Of a stretch of DNA of 64,000 nucleotides, positions 5,562 through 13,762 are shown piece after piece. Source of the DNA: Clostridium sp. (GTDB lineage: Bacteria > Bacillota > Dethiobacteria > Dethiobacterales > Dethiobacteraceae); NCBI GenBank assembly GCA_018335695.1, contig JAGXRV010000071.1:1-64000 (forward strand), read 5' to 3'. The first letter of the stretch is position 1. Each line of letters starts with the position of its first letter. Position numbers and translations under genes: made by a program. The notes under the pieces are model-generated. The model did no database searches. It was given only the letters and a program-made list of their open reading frames with translations, and had not been told where the DNA came from.

Positions 5562-6827
5562 TTGCTCACACGGCGTAGGTTTTTACAGTTTTGCTTCCAT
5601 TCTGCCGCCTCTGTCAGCCTAGCCCAATTGCTTCTGCCGGATATTGCGGAAGCGCTGCGTCTGCTTCCCGGCGGCAAACCGCCGGTTCTTTGGCTTGAAG
5701 GAACTTCTTGCACCGGTGATACCATTTCTTTAGATAATAGTGCAGATCCCTCTCTGCGCATTGTACTGGAAGAAATCATCGATCTCCGTTACAGCCCGCT
5801 TTTAATGTGGGCTCAGCATCAAGAAGCGCTGAATATCCTTTTTACTACAATGGAAAAATACCGTGACCAATTCATTCTCGTAGTGGAGGGTGGCATTCCC
5901 GTGGGCATGCCTGAAGCTGTGATTATCGGAGAACGAAACGGAAAACAGCTAGATGCCGGAAAACTGATAATCGATGTGGCTGAAGCAGCCCGAGTCGTGC
6001 TGGCAGTAGGAAATTGCGCCGCATTTGGCGGACCATCAAAGGCTAACCCCAACCCTACAGGCACAAAAGGAGTCTGGGAAATTGTCAAACAAAAACCGGT
6101 TATCAATGTACCCGGATGCCCGTCTCACCCTGACTGGATCGTCGGCACACTGGTGCATACCATTTTATACGGCTTGCCTCGAGTCGACCATTATCATCGG
6201 CCCACCATGTTTTTTGGGCAGCTAATACATGATATCTGCCCACGCCGCTTTCATTTTTATAACGGTGACTTTGCCGATTCCCCTGGCATGTCCGGCTGTT
6301 TATTAAAGGTTGGTTGCAAAGGACCTATTACTCATGCTGATTGCTCTACAAGGAAATTCAATGATGCTGTAAATTGGTGCATCAATGCCAACAATCCTTG
6401 CATTGGCTGCGCCGCACCCGATTTCCCAGACGGCGGCACATCCCCATTCTTCTCACCTTCTCCTGATATCGATATCCCTCCTGGGATAAAAACTACTGCC
6501 ATGAGTGTGGCTAAAGGAGTAGGCGCTGTCACAGCACTTGGTATTGGTAGCCATTTTGCCGCCGGCTTGCTCTCCGGCCGATTAGCTGAAAAGCTGACTG
6601 CCTCTACTGAATTGTCTGCTTCACCTCAGACCATAAAAAATGAATTAGAAGCAATCAAAGAGGAACAGTTAGCGGAAAGCAAAGTGATAGCACGCCTCGA
6701 AAAAGGACAAGATAAGCTGCTGCGGGATGTCGAGCAGTTACGGCAAACCAATCGACCGCTAAAACGCAGGAAAATACTGGCACTATTCAACCCGTTCAGG
6801 TTTCTGCGCAGAAAAAATAAACTCTAA
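5562..6827 (+). CDS. [NiFe] hydrogenase small subunit, Tat-exported, atypical cluster ligands
   Basis: The electron-transfer subunit of a periplasm-facing uptake hydrogenase. I choose a TTG start because GCAGGAGGA lies 8 bases upstream and it places the twin-arginine motif TRRRFLQ at residues 3-9 (421 residues). Proximal-cluster positions are C50, D53, C152 and C186; D53 stands where the second Cys of CxxC normally is (SCTGD). Distal ligands are H223, C226, C246 and C252. The medial region has C261, C273, C280 and C283; C273 replaces the usual Pro, which predicts a [4Fe-4S] rather than [3Fe-4S] cluster. A hydrophobic helix (about 314-340) probably anchors it. It is followed by an unusual coiled-coil, basic tail of about 75 residues. 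Operon order: small, large, cytochrome b, protease. Confidence 0.93.
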   Translation: MLTRRRFLQFCFHSAASVSLAQLLLPDIAEALRLLPGGKPPVLWLEGTSCTGDTISLDNSADPSLRIVLEEIIDLRYSPLLMWAQHQEALNILFTTMEKYRDQFILVVEGGIPVGMPEAVIIGERNGKQLDAGKLIIDVAEAARVVLAVGNCAAFGGPSKANPNPTGTKGVWEIVKQKPVINVPGCPSHPDWIVGTLVHTILYGLPRVDHYHRPTMFFGQLIHDICPRRFHFYNGDFADSPGMSGCLLKVGCKGPITHADCSTRKFNDAVNWCINANNPCIGCAAPDFPDGGTSPFFSPSPDIDIPPGIKTTAMSVAKGVGAVTALGIGSHFAAGLLSGRLAEKLTASTELSASPQTIKNELEAIKEEQLAESKVIARLEKGQDKLLRDVEQLRQTNRPLKRRKILALFNPFRFLRRKNKL

Positions 6828-6845: not shown

Positions 6846-8258
6846 ATGCCAAGAATTCGCATGAACCCCCTCACTCGAGTGCATGGCTACATGTCGGTAG
6901 AGGTAGAAATTAATCATGGCACTGTTACTGATGCTTGGAGCAGCGGCCTTCTTTACCGCGGCTTTGAAAACATCTTAAAAGGACGCTCACCGCATGATGC
7001 CGTCTACCTTACTCAAAGAATCTGCGGTATTTGCTCGTCTGCGCATGCGGTCGCGGCCGCACTTACACTGGAAAAAACCTTTAAGATTAAAGTGCCACAC
7101 AACGGTAAAATTTTAAGAAACCTTATCCTTGGTGCAGATCTGATTCAAAACCATATTCGACACATCTACCTGCTTGCTATTCCTGACTATATCAGCGCAC
7201 CAAAAAATGCACCCGGTAACAAACGTAGTGAGCTTGACTTACGGCTGCCGCCTGAGACTGAAGCGCGAATTCAGGAGAATTATCTGACGGCTCTGGAAAC
7301 AAGTTCCTTGGCTCATAAGGCGGTAGCCACCTTTGGCGGCAAAGCGCCCCATTTGCAAAGCATTGTAGCCGGAGGCGTAACAGAAGCTGTGCTCACTGAC
7401 AGAATAATCCGTTTTCAGGCTCTAATCGGTGAATTATCTCGGTTTATCAACGATAAACTGCTGCCCGATATTGAAGATATCGCCCGCTACTATCCGGACT
7501 ATTACATGATCGGAAAAGGTTATGGGAATCTTCTTTCATTTGGCATGTTCCCGTTTGCGAACAATGATCATCAAAAACATTTTACGGCAGGCCTTCTTCT
7601 CGAGAAAGAAACTCAAAAAGGTTATGACGCGGAAAAAATTAGCCTGGATATCCGCCACGCCTGGTATCAAGACAAGGAAGATGTGCAAAAACCGCTGGCG
7701 CAAACAAGCAAACCGGCACCAGCCAAGGAAGAAGCTTATTCCTGGATTAAAGCGCCGCGCTATGAAAACAGAGCTTTTGAAGGCGGCCCCTTAGCTCGGA
7801 TGTGGTTGAACGGAATCTACAAAAACGGCATTTCAGTGATGGACAGGCTGATAGCGCGTGCCATAGAAGCGCGAGAGATGACTGTACTGCTAAACGACTG
7901 GCTGCGGGAACTGATTCCGGATCAACCTACAATCAACTGGCTGGATCCACTTCCACTTAGCGGCGAGGGAGTAGGTATGACTGATGCTATGCGAGGACCC
8001 TTGGCCCACTGGTTGCGGGTAGAAAATCGCCGTATCGAGGCATACCGGATTGTTACCCCTTCGGCATGGAATCTCTCACCCAGAGATAGTGCCGGCCGGC
8101 GGGGGCCGCTTGAGGAAGCCCTGATAGGAACACCGGTTGCAAACCCAGAAAATCCGGTGGAAGTCGGCCGGGTTGTCCGCTCTTTTGACCCATGCATCTC
8201 CTGTGCAGTACATCTGTTGGAAAAGAAAAAAAAATCCCGGCTCTGGCGCCTGCTTTGA
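6846..8258 (+). CDS. [NiFe] hydrogenase large subunit
   Basis: The catalytic subunit carrying the Ni-Fe(CN)2CO site; it oxidises H2. The N-terminal RICGICSSAH motif supplies C60 and C63, and the C-terminal DPCISCAVH motif supplies C450 and C453. Cleavage after H456 by a maturation protease would remove the last 14 residues, a basic KKKK-rich peptide. GGKAPHLQS and RGFENILKG are further large-subunit signatures. At 470 residues it is on the short side for group 1 enzymes, which are usually well over 500. The ATG follows GGGAG, 18 bases after the small subunit stop. No hyp accessory genes are in the window, so they must be elsewhere. Confidence 0.95.
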   Translation: MPRIRMNPLTRVHGYMSVEVEINHGTVTDAWSSGLLYRGFENILKGRSPHDAVYLTQRICGICSSAHAVAAALTLEKTFKIKVPHNGKILRNLILGADLIQNHIRHIYLLAIPDYISAPKNAPGNKRSELDLRLPPETEARIQENYLTALETSSLAHKAVATFGGKAPHLQSIVAGGVTEAVLTDRIIRFQALIGELSRFINDKLLPDIEDIARYYPDYYMIGKGYGNLLSFGMFPFANNDHQKHFTAGLLLEKETQKGYDAEKISLDIRHAWYQDKEDVQKPLAQTSKPAPAKEEAYSWIKAPRYENRAFEGGPLARMWLNGIYKNGISVMDRLIARAIEAREMTVLLNDWLRELIPDQPTINWLDPLPLSGEGVGMTDAMRGPLAHWLRVENRRIEAYRIVTPSAWNLSPRDSAGRRGPLEEALIGTPVANPENPVEVGRVVRSFDPCISCAVHLLEKKKKSRLWRLL

Positions 8259-8267
8259 GGTGAGAGG

Positions 8268-8930
8268 ATGCGACAACCATCAATTCGCCCCTGGGAAATT
8301 CGATTCTTTCATTGGTTTTTCTTTATTGTGGTTGCTTTAAAACTCTGGAGCGGCTTTTATATCAGTGCTCCCCACCCACTTTGGGGCTTCCCCGGTATGT
8401 ATCACGCCCGCATCCTACACGCCATTCTTACCCCGGTGATGACCGGCTTGCTCACTTTTCGGCTCTATTATAGCCTGCGAAGCGGTGACTGGCGAAATCT
8501 GTTTGTCTGGCGCCGCAGGCACCTGTCTCAGCTTCCTCCTTGGCTGCGCTATACATTTTTCTTTGATAAAAAACCGCCACTCTCGAATGAAACGTACGAT
8601 ATAGGACCACGGCTGCTCTTTACAAGTATTTTTCTCACTATGCCTCTCTTTTTTGCCACCGGGCTGGTCATGCTGAATCTGCCGTCTTTTCGCTGGCTCA
8701 CTATTTTTTGCGGCGGGATGGGATCTGCCAGAAATCTCCATTTCCTTGCATCCGTCTTTTTAGCATCTTTTGTGGCTATGCATATTTATCTCGCTCTGAC
8801 AACAAATCCAAAACGACTGAAAATTATGCTTGGTTGGCGGGTAAAGCTAAATGATGCTGACGGAGAGAGGAATGATACAGATAAAAGCGATACAAGTAAT
8901 AGCACTGGGAAACAAGATTATGTCGGATGA
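8268..8930 (+). CDS. Hydrogenase b-type cytochrome subunit
   Basis: Membrane diheme cytochrome b that passes electrons from the hydrogenase small subunit to the quinone pool. 220 residues with four hydrophobic helices, as in HyaC/HupC and the cytochrome b561 family. Candidate heme-ligand histidines are H15, H46 or H51, H158 and H172. The last 35 residues are a hydrophilic Asp/Ser/Thr-rich tail. The ATG has a strong GAGGTGAGAGG site, nine bases after the large subunit stop. Its 3' end overlaps the protease gene by 59 bases, which supports one operon. Confidence 0.9.
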   Translation: MRQPSIRPWEIRFFHWFFFIVVALKLWSGFYISAPHPLWGFPGMYHARILHAILTPVMTGLLTFRLYYSLRSGDWRNLFVWRRRHLSQLPPWLRYTFFFDKKPPLSNETYDIGPRLLFTSIFLTMPLFFATGLVMLNLPSFRWLTIFCGGMGSARNLHFLASVFLASFVAMHIYLALTTNPKRLKIMLGWRVKLNDADGERNDTDKSDTSNSTGKQDYVG

Positions 8931-9441
8931 TGGTGCCGGTCCGTTCCTATTGAAAAACTTAAAAAAAATGAACTGGCCATGTCATGTAACATTTCATGAC
9001 GCAGGCATAAGCAGTTTCGAGTGTGTGCAGCTTCTAAAAAGTGACGAGCCAATCTTCATTCTGGACACTCTGAGCACAGGACGCCCGCCGGGTACCGTCA
9101 TAAAAATTAATGCCGCACTGCTAGAACTTACATTAAACAGTTTCTCTTTGCACGACCTTCACTTGCTGCATCTTGCCCGGAATTTCTGTCCGCATCGTTT
9201 GGAGCAGATTTTTATTTACGGTATCGAGCCATTATCGCTGCAGCCTGGAATAAAATTATCACACCCCGTGAGGCAGGGTCTGATATTACTTAGACGAATT
9301 GTTATCCTTGATATCTTACGTTATTGTAACGCCGGCTTGACCAAAATTTCCCTCTCCCAAAAGGCACCCTACCCCAATAAGTTTATCTCCCAAAATTCCC
9401 CTCCCTCCAAAATTCCCCTCCCTTGGAGGGGTGCCCGCTAG
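8872..9441 (+). CDS. Hydrogenase maturation protease (HycI/HyaD family)
   Basis: The endopeptidase that trims the large-subunit C-terminus after Ni insertion. The N-terminal GNKIMSDDGAG matches the GNxLxxDDGxG signature. An LDTLS aspartate and a His-rich HDLHLLHL segment sit where the other Ni-probing residues are expected. I start at the ATG at 8872, preceded by GGAGAGAGG, rather than 21 bases upstream. It has 189 residues. The final ~20-25 residues lie in palindromic repeat DNA, which also supplies the TAG stop (9439-9441). The natural C-terminus was therefore probably rewritten by the repeat, but the catalytic core is intact. Confidence 0.85.
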   Translation: MIQIKAIQVIALGNKIMSDDGAGPFLLKNLKKMNWPCHVTFHDAGISSFECVQLLKSDEPIFILDTLSTGRPPGTVIKINAALLELTLNSFSLHDLHLLHLARNFCPHRLEQIFIYGIEPLSLQPGIKLSHPVRQGLILLRRIVILDILRYCNAGLTKISLSQKAPYPNKFISQNSPPSKIPLPWRGAR

Positions 9442-9851: not shown

Positions 9852-10073
9852 ATGAACATTGATAAAAAATTTGGGGTTGTATTAAAAAAATTGAGAACAG
9901 ACAAAGGGGTTAGCCAAGAGGACTTTGCCCTAAACATTGGCTTGCATAGGACTTATATTAGCCAATTGGAAAGGGGGTTAAAAAGTCCGTCTTTGCGTAC
10001 AATTGAAAAAATATGTAGTGAGTTGGAAATCAGTCCTAGTCTTTTAATGCAAATGATAGAATCGTTAGGCTAG
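9852..10073 (+). CDS. XRE-family controller (C) protein of an R-M-type locus
   Basis: 73 residues, almost entirely one Cro/C1-type helix-turn-helix (SQEDFALNIGLHRTYISQLERG is the recognition region, about residues 20-41). The size and layout are those of controller proteins that time the restriction enzyme after the methyltransferase. There is no convincing ribosome site before the ATG, and the -10-like box is ten bases away, fitting leaderless translation. Palindromic sites related to AATACTATAGTATT lie both upstream and downstream, before the 485-residue gene. The DNA is clearly more AT-rich than the core genes, suggesting acquisition. Confidence 0.8.
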   Translation: MNIDKKFGVVLKKLRTDKGVSQEDFALNIGLHRTYISQLERGLKSPSLRTIEKICSELEISPSLLMQMIESLG

Positions 10074-10121
10074 ATACCGTAGTATTCACCTATATCGTAG
10101 CAATAAGAATACTATAGTATT
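10074..10121 (+). promoter_or_regulatory. Second pair of C-box-like palindromes, before the 485-residue gene
   Basis: A perfect 14-base palindrome AATACTATAGTATT lies at 10108-10121. A degenerate partner, ATAC-4-GTAT, lies at 10074-10085. Their centres are 35 bases apart. They share the ACTAT/ATAGT core of the site upstream of the controller gene, so the same protein probably controls the downstream gene. No clean -35/-10 pair is obvious between here and 10169. Confidence 0.55.
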
Positions 10122-10168
10122 TATCTTCTTGTCAATACACTTCTGAACTACTTTGAAAGGAGTTTTAT

Positions 10169-11626
10169 ATGGGCTTTAAGGAGAACTGGAGTTTTTTAGA
10201 TAAACTATCAATGGGAGCTGTTGGAACAACCAAGGTTCGAGAAGTTCTAAATCGTAACGGTCATAACTTAATTGAACTAGAGCGGCACTCATTAAACAAT
10301 AAAATCTGGCCTACTAAAATCAAACGACTTCGTGTTCCTGATTTGGTATGCCTAAACTGTGGAAAGCGAATTGAATCGAGAGCCAAATCAAACCTTGGAA
10401 TTATCATGTCGGATTCCCCCTGTGTCAAGGAAAGAAAATGGGATTATGGTTTAAGAAACGATGATTTAGTTGCTTTCATATTCTGTTCTAAAGATGGAAG
10501 TGGCTCATGGGTAGCCTCTGATGAAGTGAATCTCTTTACTGTACAAGATTTAAGAAACAGCGAAGAAAACACAAAATTAGGCGCACCCAAATCTGCAAAC
10601 GAAGGTGCTGAGCGAGATAGGAGTTGGAGTTCTTATACCCCAGGTTTTAATGGCTCAGTTTATTCTATCACTGATACACATATAAAATTTATCAAAGAAG
10701 ATGGGGGTTCCTATAATAAGAAAATTGCTGAAGACCATTATGTCCACGTTCAAGTAGGAGAACATTTGGTCTCCAATTCAAAAATTGTACACTCAATTGT
10801 TGAGAATAAAGAGCATGGCCGCTGTGAATCGATTAATTATAACTTTCTAAATGATTTAAACGGACACGATTTAGAAACACAGTATTGCGCTGTAAAAGCA
10901 TTAGGATATTCATCTGAAAATAGACATCTAACAGTTACGGCTTTACGCCAACTTTCAGAACGTTCTAGCGATATGAGAATTAAACTTGAAATCTTATCAT
11001 CTCTTGCCAAGTTAGGCGAAGATGTTTGGAGTCAATTAACTGGTGTACTATCGACTGCTGAAATCAAATTAAAAATGGAATTGGTTTTTATCTTAGGAGA
11101 ACTTATCGATCTTACTCCAGCTCAGGAAATGTTAAAAGGAATTGTAAATAACGAAGCATTAAATAACGAAATTCGTGCTGCTGCAATATGGGTTATGGGA
11201 AATCAAGAATTGCTATTTGACTTTATTCTTAGTAAAACGAGTGACTTAGATACCCTGGTAGCTACCCATGCGTACACAGCAATTGAAAGAGTCATCAAGC
11301 CAAAACATACTGCTTTGCTCTTACAACTATTAGATGGGAACACAAGAAACAGAGATTCAGCCATAAGACTTATCTCAACTAGCTGTAATCTTGACGATAA
11401 CCTTATTGTACATAGATTAATTAGTGAACCAGACAAGGCAAAAAAAAAATCGTTATTATATGCAATTGGAACATCGGATAGAAATCGTTTCCAATACAAA
11501 ATTCAAACAATAGACCCTGACGCTGAAAACACTTTAAGTCTTCTATCAGTCTTTTGGCAGAATAGTAATAGCTGGATAACAAAAGAGATTGAAAATGAAA
11601 TAGAATTTCTAAAAAAACAGAAATAG
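10169..11626 (+). CDS. Candidate restriction endonuclease with HEAT-like repeats (unknown family)
   Basis: 485 residues, not a family I can name. The first ~130 residues contain P57-D58, then E69-S-R71-A-K73, with acidic helix residues E36/E38 before them. This resembles a PD-(D/E)xK nuclease core, though the E..K spacing is not canonical. A C61-x2-C64 pair sits between the two halves, and C85/C106 could complete a metal site. Residues about 225-400 are repeated amphipathic helix pairs of HEAT type, a fold that can wrap DNA (AlkD). Its position between a controller protein with operator-like sites and a DNA methyltransferase makes a restriction enzyme the best inference. The ATG has a strong AAAGGAG site. 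An alternative is a scaffold or defence effector without nuclease activity. Confidence 0.6.
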   Translation: MGFKENWSFLDKLSMGAVGTTKVREVLNRNGHNLIELERHSLNNKIWPTKIKRLRVPDLVCLNCGKRIESRAKSNLGIIMSDSPCVKERKWDYGLRNDDLVAFIFCSKDGSGSWVASDEVNLFTVQDLRNSEENTKLGAPKSANEGAERDRSWSSYTPGFNGSVYSITDTHIKFIKEDGGSYNKKIAEDHYVHVQVGEHLVSNSKIVHSIVENKEHGRCESINYNFLNDLNGHDLETQYCAVKALGYSSENRHLTVTALRQLSERSSDMRIKLEILSSLAKLGEDVWSQLTGVLSTAEIKLKMELVFILGELIDLTPAQEMLKGIVNNEALNNEIRAAAIWVMGNQELLFDFILSKTSDLDTLVATHAYTAIERVIKPKHTALLLQLLDGNTRNRDSAIRLISTSCNLDDNLIVHRLISEPDKAKKKSLLYAIGTSDRNRFQYKIQTIDPDAENTLSLLSVFWQNSNSWITKEIENEIEFLKKQK

Positions 11627-11640
11627 GTCACGGGAGGTGA

Positions 11641-12591
11641 TTATTTCTGTATAAATCCGATTTTTTCTCCATTTATAATTTTTACATACATTTCCTTTAC
11701 ATCATTTTTATCTTGCACAAAACGGCTTATTGAAGCTGCGATATATTCCAAATTTTCTTCAAAAGCAATCCATTGTCTTTTAAGTTCTTCAGCAACTGCT
11801 CCAGTTGTGTTAGAACCAGCAAAAAAATCTAGTACTACATCACCAGGGTCTGTTAGCATCTTAATAAAGAACTCTGGCAACTTAGATGGGAATCGTGCTG
11901 GATGTGCTTTAACGCCTAACAATTTACACAATGCTAAGTAGCGAGAATTACTTTCAGAATTTGCAATCTGTAGGAGATTAGTGGGTATTGCACCTCCATT
12001 GTCTTTACCGAACCCGACCGAAATATCATGACCGGAGGGTCTTTCTTTAGGTGTGTAATATTTTTCTGAATTTTCAATTAATTTTACCATTCTATCTGAA
12101 TATGGCACTAAAACATTTCGCACATCAGCCTTTGGGTTTGGCGTTTTTGAAAACCACCAAACTGTATTAACAGAGTCCTTGACTCTGATTTTTCTTTTAT
12201 TAACCCATTCTATAGGGGAAGGCAGTTTTGATGGATTATGCCAAAAAAATTCTTCTGCTAAATAATATCCTAACTCCTCACAGAATCTAACTAATATCTT
12301 ATAATTATATAAAGACCTGACGGGTATTCCCTTTTGGTATGCTCCACCAAGGTCAAGAACAAAACTTCCAGTATTTTTTAATTTTGGTAGTAATATTTTT
12401 GCAAATCTACTGAGCCAATCTATGTATTCGTCTTGAGGCTTATTACCATATTCTTTTTGACGTTGTAGTGCAAATGGTGGAGATGTTATTGCTAAGTCAA
12501 TGGAATCATCTTCTAGCGCTGGGATAAGTTCAATAGAGTCACCACAGAAACATTTCCCAAGATTTGAATGGTATATTGGCTCATTAATCAT
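11641..12591 (-). CDS. DNA methyltransferase, beta class, N4-cytosine type likely
   Basis: An S-adenosylmethionine-dependent DNA methylase of 316 residues in beta-class order. The catalytic motif IV is TSPPF at about residues 36-40. The SAM-binding motif I is DPGDVVLDFFAGSNTTG at about 249-265, preceded by a HPARFPSKLPEFFIKMLT segment. SPP(F/Y) favours N4-methylcytosine, although some N6-adenine enzymes have it. The central ~120 residues should hold target recognition. I start at the ATG at 12591, after GAGGTG; the GTG three codons upstream lies inside that site. It converges with the candidate nuclease, leaving only 14 bases between stops, so it probably protects the cognate site. Confidence 0.9.
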   Translation of the reverse strand: MINEPIYHSNLGKCFCGDSIELIPALEDDSIDLAITSPPFALQRQKEYGNKPQDEYIDWLSRFAKILLPKLKNTGSFVLDLGGAYQKGIPVRSLYNYKILVRFCEELGYYLAEEFFWHNPSKLPSPIEWVNKRKIRVKDSVNTVWWFSKTPNPKADVRNVLVPYSDRMVKLIENSEKYYTPKERPSGHDISVGFGKDNGGAIPTNLLQIANSESNSRYLALCKLLGVKAHPARFPSKLPEFFIKMLTDPGDVVLDFFAGSNTTGAVAEELKRQWIAFEENLEYIAASISRFVQDKNDVKEMYVKIINGEKIGFIQK

Positions 12592-12723
12592 AAACTGCAC
12601 CTCAAAGAGTTCTTTGTTATTGAGTTCGACAAAAATATTTTTATCCCTGCTATGGTGAGAACATTTGTTCTATTTTCAATAAACTCTACCACCATAAGTA
12701 CGATAGCTTCATTGTTTTGCCCT

Positions 12724-12760
12724 AAAAAAATAGCTGAGCAGCCACCTATGCTCAGCTATT
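12724..12760 (-). terminator. Intrinsic terminator after the 32-residue microprotein gene
   Basis: AATAGCTGAGCA and TGCTCAGCTATT form a perfect 12-base stem with an 8-base loop. On the minus strand a run of seven T follows. It lies ten bases beyond the stop of the small ORF at 12770-12868 and insulates the methyltransferase from upstream transcription. Confidence 0.85.
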
Positions 12761-12769
12761 TGACTTAAT

Positions 12770-12868
12770 TTACTTCTTTAACCAAATTCTAAAAGCCTTT
12801 TTGCCATAGTCACGCGCATAAATACGCCGACCGCAGGGCAGTGTGATATAGACTGTGAATTTCCACAC
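12770..12868 (-). CDS. 32-residue basic microprotein
   Basis: GTG start, 32 codons, ending in WLKK and TAA. The product is basic and aromatic, with a YITLPCGRRIYARDYGKKAF core. AGGGTGA lies five bases before the GTG, and a perfect intrinsic terminator lies ten bases after the stop, so the unit has the layout of a free-standing gene. I recall similarly short YARDYG-type proteins annotated as hypothetical in mobile regions, but cannot verify this here. The function is unknown; placement between the methyltransferase and the small RNA candidate suggests accessory or defence cargo. An overlapping 20-codon ATG frame is possible but reads less like protein. Confidence 0.5.
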   Translation of the reverse strand: MWKFTVYITLPCGRRIYARDYGKKAFRIWLKK

Positions 12869-12902
12869 GCATATCACCCTTTCAGCGAACCAACATCTGA
12901 CC

Positions 12903-12931
12903 TTGCATGGCAGTCTATATTTTGTTATAAT
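12903..12931 (+). promoter_or_regulatory. Extended -10 promoter for a small RNA candidate
   Basis: TTGCAT (12903-12908), a 17-base spacer, then TATAAT (12926-12931) preceded by TGT, giving an extended -10 element. The predicted start is at about 12938-12940. A 10-base inverted repeat, ATATAGACTG (about 12847-12856) and CAGTCTATAT (12911-12920), places one arm within the spacer and could be an operator. Confidence 0.65.
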
Positions 12932-12937
12932 TGGTTA

Positions 12938-13048
12938 CAACGTTTTTTCGGTGGCTAAATTATTTACTGACCACCCCGACTGGTTCGCTCGTAGTCGGGA
13001 AGCAAGACCTATATGTTAAGCCGGTCTACCAACCGGCGAATTTTTTTA
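12938..13048 (+). ncRNA. Candidate ~110-nt structured small RNA
   Basis: The segment runs from a consensus promoter to a perfect intrinsic terminator and has no credible reading frame. Three successive stems are visible: GGTGG/CCACC, CCCGACT/AGTCGGG (11-base loop) and GCCGGT/ACCGGC (6-base loop). The last is followed by a T7 tract at 13041-13047. The RNA ends at the stop of the convergent 238-residue gene, so its last few bases are antisense to that message. It does not match tmRNA, RNase P, 6S, SRP RNA or a riboswitch that I know. A role as a regulator of the neighbouring genes is inference. Confidence 0.5.
13020..13047 (+). terminator. Intrinsic terminator of the small RNA candidate
   Basis: A perfect GCCGGT/ACCGGC stem at 13020-13037, three bases, then seven T. 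Oriented on the plus strand, it ends transcription from the promoter at 12903-12931. The T tract touches the stop codon of the convergent gene. Confidence 0.8.
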
Positions 13049-13762
13049 TTGCCGAGGAATCACGGCAATATCTAAAAACATTTTTAATCGTTCTATGTCT
13101 GTCTTTGCTATATCAGTTGGTATTTTTAAATAAGCAAAGCCACCCTCAGTCATTGCTAATTTTAGCTCCTGATATTTTATATCGCTTGCTACTTCTATTT
13201 TTTCTTCCATATTTGTTACAGGATTTTTGATTCCCACCTGCTCTGATTCGGTGCAAGAATTATCTTTATATGTTACTAATACACCTTCAACTACCGCACC
13301 AGCAAACTCTCCTGATTTTATAAAAGTTTCAGCGGCTTTGTCTTTAACAGTTTTTAAAATATCAAAGTCATTGGTCAAGATATTTCCGAGTATATTAACC
13401 TCTGGCAGGCTTTTTCCAGCAAATCTGTCAACTAACTTTTGGTATAGTGCAGGACTAATAAAACTATCATAGTATAATTTTTTATTATCTTCCTTACTGG
13501 TAGGGTAAAGTATTTTTTTTGCCAAAGGCGTGATAAAGAACTGTTTGTCTTTCTCTTCTAAAAGTCCGAACTGTTTTGAACTGCTAACTTTACTGGTATA
13601 TGAGCGTGTTAAACGATTTGCTATGTTAAGAGCATCAAGTATATTCTGTTCTGAAACGGATTTACCACCTAGGCTATCAACTAGCCTTGTAAAGTTAATG
13701 CACTCTTCAAGGTCATAGTAGGGGTATGGACTACTTTTTTCTTTTTTTTGCATTTTTTCCAT
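13046..13762 (-). CDS. Unknown 238-residue protein, winged-helix-like
   Basis: I do not recognise a named function. Residues about 20-80 look like a winged helix (INFTRLVDSLGG, then ALNIANRLTRSY), ending in FFITPLAKKIL. A second helical part at about 90-150 contains ISPALYQKLVDRF. The C-terminus ends with an LKIPTDIAKTDIERLKMFL segment. That last motif is common at the end of mobile-element and phage regulatory proteins; the layout recalls DUF5343-type proteins, an unverified recollection. The ATG follows AAGGAGGG at ideal spacing. It is AT-rich like the rest of the island. A DNA-binding accessory of the R-M island is possible but not shown. Confidence 0.75.
   Translation of the reverse strand: MEKMQKKEKSSPYPYYDLEECINFTRLVDSLGGKSVSEQNILDALNIANRLTRSYTSKVSSSKQFGLLEEKDKQFFITPLAKKILYPTSKEDNKKLYYDSFISPALYQKLVDRFAGKSLPEVNILGNILTNDFDILKTVKDKAAETFIKSGEFAGAVVEGVLVTYKDNSCTESEQVGIKNPVTNMEEKIEVASDIKYQELKLAMTEGGFAYLKIPTDIAKTDIERLKMFLDIAVIPRQ

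What the first reader, a model, noticed from the sequence alone, without database searches (positions are those of the whole stretch)
5562..6827. Hydrogenase small subunit with Asp at the proximal and Cys at the medial cluster
The proximal CxxC motif reads SCTGD, so D53 replaces the second Cys. The medial-cluster Pro that gives [3Fe-4S] in standard enzymes is C273, predicting [4Fe-4S]. A 3Cys-1Asp proximal cluster and three [4Fe-4S] clusters have been reported for actinobacterial-type (group 1h) O2-insensitive enzymes. Seeing both features in a Tat/cytochrome-b uptake hydrogenase from a Firmicutes-like anaerobe would be notable for electron transfer potential and oxygen response.
Basis: partly seen in the sequence, partly recalled or inferred. 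Interest (0 to 1): 0.7.

Follow-up and report, generated by a model that had tools for sequence, protein, structure and literature searches.

The report
Uptake hydrogenase lacking one cluster cysteine
A hydrogen-consuming enzyme from a Dethiobacter-like bacterium really does have an aspartate where one cysteine normally holds its innermost iron-sulfur cluster, but this loss is shared by a large, uncharacterised family of related bacterial enzymes and does not make it an oxygen-resistant type; what is unusual is the added cysteine at the middle cluster.

Summary
The Tat-exported small subunit (5562-6827) has C50-x-x-D53 at the proximal cluster and C273 at the medial Pro position. The mature protein has no spare cysteine, so nothing can stand in for D53. 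The operon is small subunit, large subunit, four-His cytochrome b and HycI-type protease: an outward-facing uptake hydrogenase in a Dethiobacteria genome. The Asp sits in the same alignment column as the Asp of the actinobacterial-type (1h) enzyme of Cupriavidus. However, the protein is not 1h: 225 bits to NiFeSe enzymes against 105 to 1h, with Tat signal and cytochrome b. In a tree of 146 small subunits all 75 members of one clade lack that cysteine (41 Asp, 30 Asn, 2 Glu, 2 His). Natural Asp and Asn at this position, and active C81D/N mutants, were published in 2014. So Asp alone is routine here. Medial Cys is routine in the sister clade and in NiFeSe enzymes. The combination is restricted to six Dethiobacteria loci, three Asp and three Asn. 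Known enzymes show the cluster can be [4Fe-4S] with Asp (1h) or [3Fe-4S] with Asn (Huc), so sequence cannot settle the cluster type. No evidence supports O2 tolerance. New variant of a known kind; moderate interest.

The parts
5562..6827 (+). [NiFe] hydrogenase small subunit, 421 aa, Tat signal RRRFLQF, C-terminal hydrophobic helix (residues ~313-337) and a charged tail
   Evidence: TIGR00391 258 bits over cut-off 179.5; PF14720, PF01058; PDB matches; hydropathy
5709..5720 (+). proximal-cluster motif C50-T-G-D53 in place of CxxC
   Evidence: alignment with 1h HofK CDGD, Hyd-2 CTGC, NiFeSe CTGC
6015..6017 (+). proximal ligand C152
6117..6119 (+). proximal ligand C186
6228..6317 (+). distal-cluster ligands H223, C226, C246, C252
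6342..6410 (+). medial-cluster ligands C261, C273 (usual Pro position), C280, C283
6846..8258 (+). [NiFe] hydrogenase large subunit with RICGIC and DPCISC-AVH; no selenocysteine
   Evidence: PF00374 375 bits; NF033181 520 bits, below its cut-off of 600
8268..8930 (+). cytochrome b561-type subunit, four heme His (15, 51, 158, 172) conserved with HoxZ and HyaC
   Evidence: PF01292; alignment; the only PF01292 gene found in the genome
8851..9441 (+). HycI/HyaD-type maturation protease (listed ORF start overlaps cytochrome b; true start probably downstream)
   Evidence: TIGR00072 over cut-off, PF01750

Best explanation
This is an outward-facing, Tat-exported, cytochrome-b-linked [NiFe] uptake hydrogenase of an anaerobic Dethiobacteria bacterium. 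It belongs to a broad Bacillota clade that has lost the second proximal-cluster cysteine. H2 is oxidised outside the membrane. Electrons pass from the NiFe site through a proximal cluster held by C50, C152, C186 and most likely the carboxylate of D53 (a [4Fe-4S] with one oxygen-ligated iron). They then pass through an all-cysteine medial [4Fe-4S] and a 3Cys-1His distal [4Fe-4S] into the two hemes of the cytochrome b. The replaced medial Pro should lower the medial potential by a few hundred mV, as P238C does in D. fructosivorans, giving a flatter relay closer to the H2 couple. Shown by sequence: ligand pattern, lack of spare Cys, operon, clade. Inferred: cluster type, Asp ligation, potentials and direction. 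The membrane acceptor is unresolved.
For: All other 11 ligand columns are filled and the mature protein has no spare Cys. Asp is in the same column as the Asp of 1h HofK, and group 1h is described as having an Asp-coordinated proximal [4Fe4S] (PMC7174314). C81D and C81N of the Alteromonas enzyme are active (PMC4070099). The clade is monophyletic with the trait columns removed: 75 rows, SH-aLRT 99; 68 rows, 100, with both subunits joined. Operon with cytochrome b conserved in the five close relatives and in the sampled clade members. Four heme His conserved. TatC and HypD are present in the genome. Medial Pro-to-Cys effect: +65 to -250 mV in D. fructosivorans (PMC4463661).
Against: Asp and Asn interchange often (about 14 changes within the clade on the joined tree), even between 65-85% identical homologues, so an anionic ligand cannot be essential. 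Huc, with Asn here, has a proximal [3Fe-4S]. I found no solved structure of any member. The AlphaFold model was too poor to use (mean pLDDT 44). MqnA-like and MenD family searches found nothing, and a MenA-like prenyltransferase scored below its cut-offs, so quinone reduction is not established.
Confidence: 0.58

Rival explanations
1. The proximal cluster is [3Fe-4S] (or loses its fourth iron easily). The residue at position 53 is not a firm ligand but a space-filling or hydrogen-bonding group, as Pro is at the usual medial site. The relay would then be high-potential proximal, low-potential medial, low-potential distal.
For: Huc has CSGN at this column and its structure and EPR give [3Fe-4S] at all three sites, the fourth coordinating residue being part of that assignment (PMC10017518). 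Three of six close relatives have Asn; Asn, Glu and His all occur in the clade.
Against: 1h enzymes with Asp at the same column are reported as [4Fe-4S]. Asp is kept in all three members of the window's own genus that carry the gene. A small subunit with unusual ligands was reported to carry intact 4Fe4S clusters (as cited in PMC4070099).
Confidence: 0.34
2. A member or close mimic of group 1h: an O2-insensitive, possibly high-affinity hydrogenase with three [4Fe-4S] clusters and an Asp-tuned proximal cluster.
For: Same Asp column and a medial Cys. RICGIC in the large subunit, as in the 1h large subunit.
Against: Scores 225 bits to NiFeSe and 105 bits to 5AA5. Tat signal and cytochrome b present, whereas HofK has neither an RR signal nor a cytochrome b neighbour. 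The clade's Asp arose among 1a/NiFeSe-like Bacillota enzymes, and the named relatives are Dethiobacter-type anaerobes.
Confidence: 0.03
3. A decaying, inactive hydrogenase in which a ligand has been lost by drift.
For: Loss of a ligand conserved in most hydrogenases.
Against: Every other ligand, the NiFe ligands, the heme His and the operon are kept over 65-86% identity, and the loss is fixed in 75 of 75 clade members across many families.
Confidence: 0.02

Closest known systems
[NiFeSe] and group 1a-like [NiFe] hydrogenases (Desulfovibrio vulgaris 2WPN, Desulfomicrobium baculatum 1CC1)
   Same: best PDB matches (225 and 213 bits); medial position is Cys; distal 3Cys-1His
   Different: those have Cys at proximal position 2; no selenocysteine in the window's large subunit; family scores below NiFeSe cut-offs
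Group 1h actinobacterial-type hydrogenase of Cupriavidus necator (HofK, 5AA5)
   Same: CxGD with the Asp in the same column, and a medial Cys
   Different: only 105 bits; no Tat signal, no cytochrome b, different operon; the Asp appears to have a separate origin
Group 2a Huc of Mycobacterium smegmatis (7UTD)
   Same: non-Cys (Asn) at the same proximal column, CSGN, as in three close relatives of the window
   Different: 119 bits; all three clusters [3Fe-4S]; aerobic enzyme that reduces menaquinone directly
Geobacter metalloreducens (Asp) and Nostoc punctiforme HupS (Asn) small subunits listed by Yonemoto et al. 2014
   Same: natural substitutions at proximal position 2
   Different: relationship of the Geobacter protein to this clade could not be tested here; Nostoc has Lys at the medial Pro position

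Membership tests
Group 1 Tat/cytochrome-b uptake [NiFe] hydrogenase | small subunit with Tat signal and three-cluster ligand set | tested here: met
   RRRFLQF; 11 of 12 usual ligand columns filled as in relatives, the twelfth Asp
Group 1 Tat/cytochrome-b uptake [NiFe] hydrogenase | large subunit with RxCGxC and DPCxxC, matured by a protease | tested here: met
   RICGIC, DPCISCAVH, HycI-type protease
Group 1 Tat/cytochrome-b uptake [NiFe] hydrogenase | di-heme cytochrome b encoded next to it | tested here: met
   PF01292 and four conserved His
Group 1h (actinobacterial type) | proximal CxxD with Asp | tested here: met
   same column as HofK
Group 1h (actinobacterial type) | sequence kinship with 1h and its operon, no Tat signal | tested here: not met
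   225 bits to NiFeSe against 105 to 5AA5; Tat plus cytochrome b
Group 1h (actinobacterial type) | O2-insensitive catalysis | not testable with these tools
   needs purified enzyme
[NiFeSe] hydrogenase | selenocysteine in the large-subunit C-terminal motif | tested here: not met
   DPCISC with Cys; no in-frame stop
[NiFeSe] hydrogenase | medial Cys giving [4Fe-4S] | tested here: met
   C273 present; the cluster type itself was not tested
HydDB group 1a | placement by the HydDB classifier | not tested
   HydDB not available; nearest structures and the sister enzymes are 1a/NiFeSe-like
Group 1d O2-tolerant | six-Cys proximal [4Fe-3S] site | tested here: not met
   three Cys, no extra Cys

The most novel reading that the evidence does not exclude
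A large, undescribed Bacillota clade of uptake hydrogenases has given up the second proximal cysteine, and the Asp/Asn state in the window's family works as a natural switch between an Asp-ligated [4Fe-4S] and a Huc-like [3Fe-4S] proximal cluster in otherwise similar anaerobic enzymes, paired in this family with a low-potential medial [4Fe-4S].
Probability: 0.22. Interest if true: 0.7.

Novelty: new variant of a known kind. Interest (0 to 1): 0.42.

Why it matters
The proximal cluster next to the NiFe site is thought to set O2 tolerance and catalytic bias. A whole clade of anaerobe enzymes without its second cysteine suggests that the Asp of group 1h is not by itself a mark of O2 insensitivity. 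The six Dethiobacteria homologues, with Asp in three and Asn in three in an otherwise conserved motif, allow a direct test of what that residue does to cluster type and potential.

Tried and rejected
Another Cys taking the proximal place: rejected, none is free; no clade-wide extra Cys in either subunit. Sequencing error: rejected. Group 1h membership: rejected. Selenoprotein: rejected. Medial Cys as ancestral or regained: the small-subunit tree puts the six loci at the base (support 89), the joined tree nests them among medial-Pro enzymes, and the AU test cannot choose (p 0.255); left open. The 9 rows scored Ser/Asn at both CxxC positions are probably an alignment shift: they read [D/C]SGDNN, one of them (L154) CSGD, so they were recounted as Asp at position 2; notebook entry 2 predates this correction. 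AlphaFold with six homologues gave pLDDT 44 and was not used. Quinone route by MqnA or MenD: not found. The 2013 AH paper was not held.

Full report
What is there. The ORF at 5562-6827 encodes a [NiFe] hydrogenase small subunit with a Tat signal (MLTRRRFLQF). It begins at a TTG codon behind a good Shine-Dalgarno sequence. It is followed by the large subunit (6846-8258), a cytochrome b (8268-8930) and a HycI-type protease (8851-9441). The closest solved structures are the NiFeSe enzymes of Desulfovibrio and Desulfomicrobium. The nearest named genomes are Dethiobacter MAGs, two of them isolates labelled CROMO. [quoted passage not shown] The same four-gene operon follows a divergently oriented FtsK/UppP/Na-Pi-like gene set in the relatives (judged by gene order and lengths), so it looks vertically kept.

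Ligands. Aligning 146 small subunits, with the 1h enzyme HofK, Hyd-1, Hyd-2, MBH, RH and a NiFeSe enzyme as landmarks, puts D53 in the column of the second proximal cysteine and C273 in the column of the medial proline. HofK reads CDGD with Asp in the same column and also has a Cys at the medial column. The window protein has 11 cysteines: one in the signal peptide and ten at ligand positions. No cysteine is left to replace D53. In two same-genus relatives the residue is Asp, in three same-family relatives it is Asn, and all six have the medial Cys.

How common. A maximum-likelihood tree made without the three trait columns puts the window protein in a clade of 75 small subunits (SH-aLRT 99), none of which has the cysteine. 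With the large subunit joined in, the clade has support 100; the large-subunit tree alone leaves the clade in an unresolved fork with some Cys-bearing long branches. Over the 75 rows the residue is Asp in 41, Asn in 30, Glu in 2 and His in 2, after moving nine rows with a probable one-residue register shift into Asp. The sampled clade members carry the same kind of cytochrome-b operon. Sixty-five of the other 69 have medial Pro. The relatives that keep the proximal Cys nearly all have medial Cys (63 of 65). The window's family is thus the only part of this Bacillota sample that combines a non-Cys proximal ligand with a medial Cys. Whether the medial Cys was kept or regained is unresolved (AU p 0.255). 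The sample covers Bacillota only; most genomes in it are unnamed and HydDB could not be run.

What is known. Yonemoto et al. (PMC4070099) listed natural Asp (Geobacter) and Asn (Nostoc) at this position in 2014 and showed that C81D and C81N of the Alteromonas enzyme are active. Group 1h is described as having an Asp at the proximal [4Fe-4S] (PMC7174314). Huc, whose solved sequence reads CSGN here, has three [3Fe-4S] clusters (PMC10017518). The medial Pro-to-Cys change turns [3Fe-4S] into [4Fe-4S] and lowers the potential from +65 to -250 mV in D. fructosivorans (PMC4463661). Each feature is therefore precedented; I found no description of the clade or of the combination in the papers I could search.

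Mechanism. The most likely reading is H2 oxidation outside the cell with electrons leaving through the proximal cluster (3 Cys plus Asp), an all-Cys medial [4Fe-4S] and a His-ligated distal cluster into a cytochrome b with four conserved heme histidines. TatC and HypD genes are present. Asp as the ligand is supported by the 1h precedent. The frequent exchange with Asn (14 changes within the clade on the joined tree, against 18-27 for shuffled labels) argues that the fourth ligand is weak, and a Huc-like [3Fe-4S] is a serious rival. The acceptor is open: a MenA-like prenyltransferase was found, but MqnA-like and MenD families were not, in a genome estimated as 99% complete. Nothing supports O2 tolerance: no six-Cys site, no kinship with 1h, anaerobic relatives.

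Second-sphere leads. The clade differs from its Cys-bearing relatives at several large-subunit columns, notably Arg105 where others mostly have Leu and Ile62 (inside RICGIC) where others mostly have Val. Their position relative to the cluster was not modelled here.

Verdict. Observation confirmed; interpretation partly supported; a new variant within a known kind of enzyme.

Noticed in passing
window 9852-13762: A block with a restriction-control-like HTH protein, a HEAT-repeat-like 485-aa protein, a type II DNA methyltransferase (PADLOC MTase_II, 534 bits) and a 238-aa unknown lies between the hydrogenase operon and the 78-aa/253-aa genes. In relatives L008-L010 genes of those sizes follow the operon directly, so it looks like an inserted restriction-modification island.
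   Followed up: partly
L146, L152, L154, L155, L156, L157, L165, L168, L174 (small subunits): Nine relatives read [D/C]SGDNN at the proximal motif; eight of them seem to have Asp at both CxxC positions, leaving two cysteines for the proximal cluster. Alignment here is uncertain by one residue.
   Followed up: partly
G000 contig C7 (L002, L006, L007, L191): The genome also has a group 3b-like sulfhydrogenase (HydD, HydA and HydG-like subunits) with a HypA-like gene beside it and HypD on the same contig.
   Followed up: partly
G000 (whole genome): MqnA-like and MenD families were not found although a MenA-like prenyltransferase and a hydrogenase-type cytochrome b are present; the quinone, if any, is unclear.
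   Followed up: partly
window 6846-8258 and clade large subunits: Arg105 (NHxRH in place of SHxLH) and Ile62 mark the non-Cys clade in the large subunit; possible second-sphere or gas-channel covariation.
   Followed up: no
window 6500-6827: The small subunit carries a long charged, coiled-coil-like tail after its membrane helix; the tail is shorter or absent in L011 and L012.
   Followed up: no
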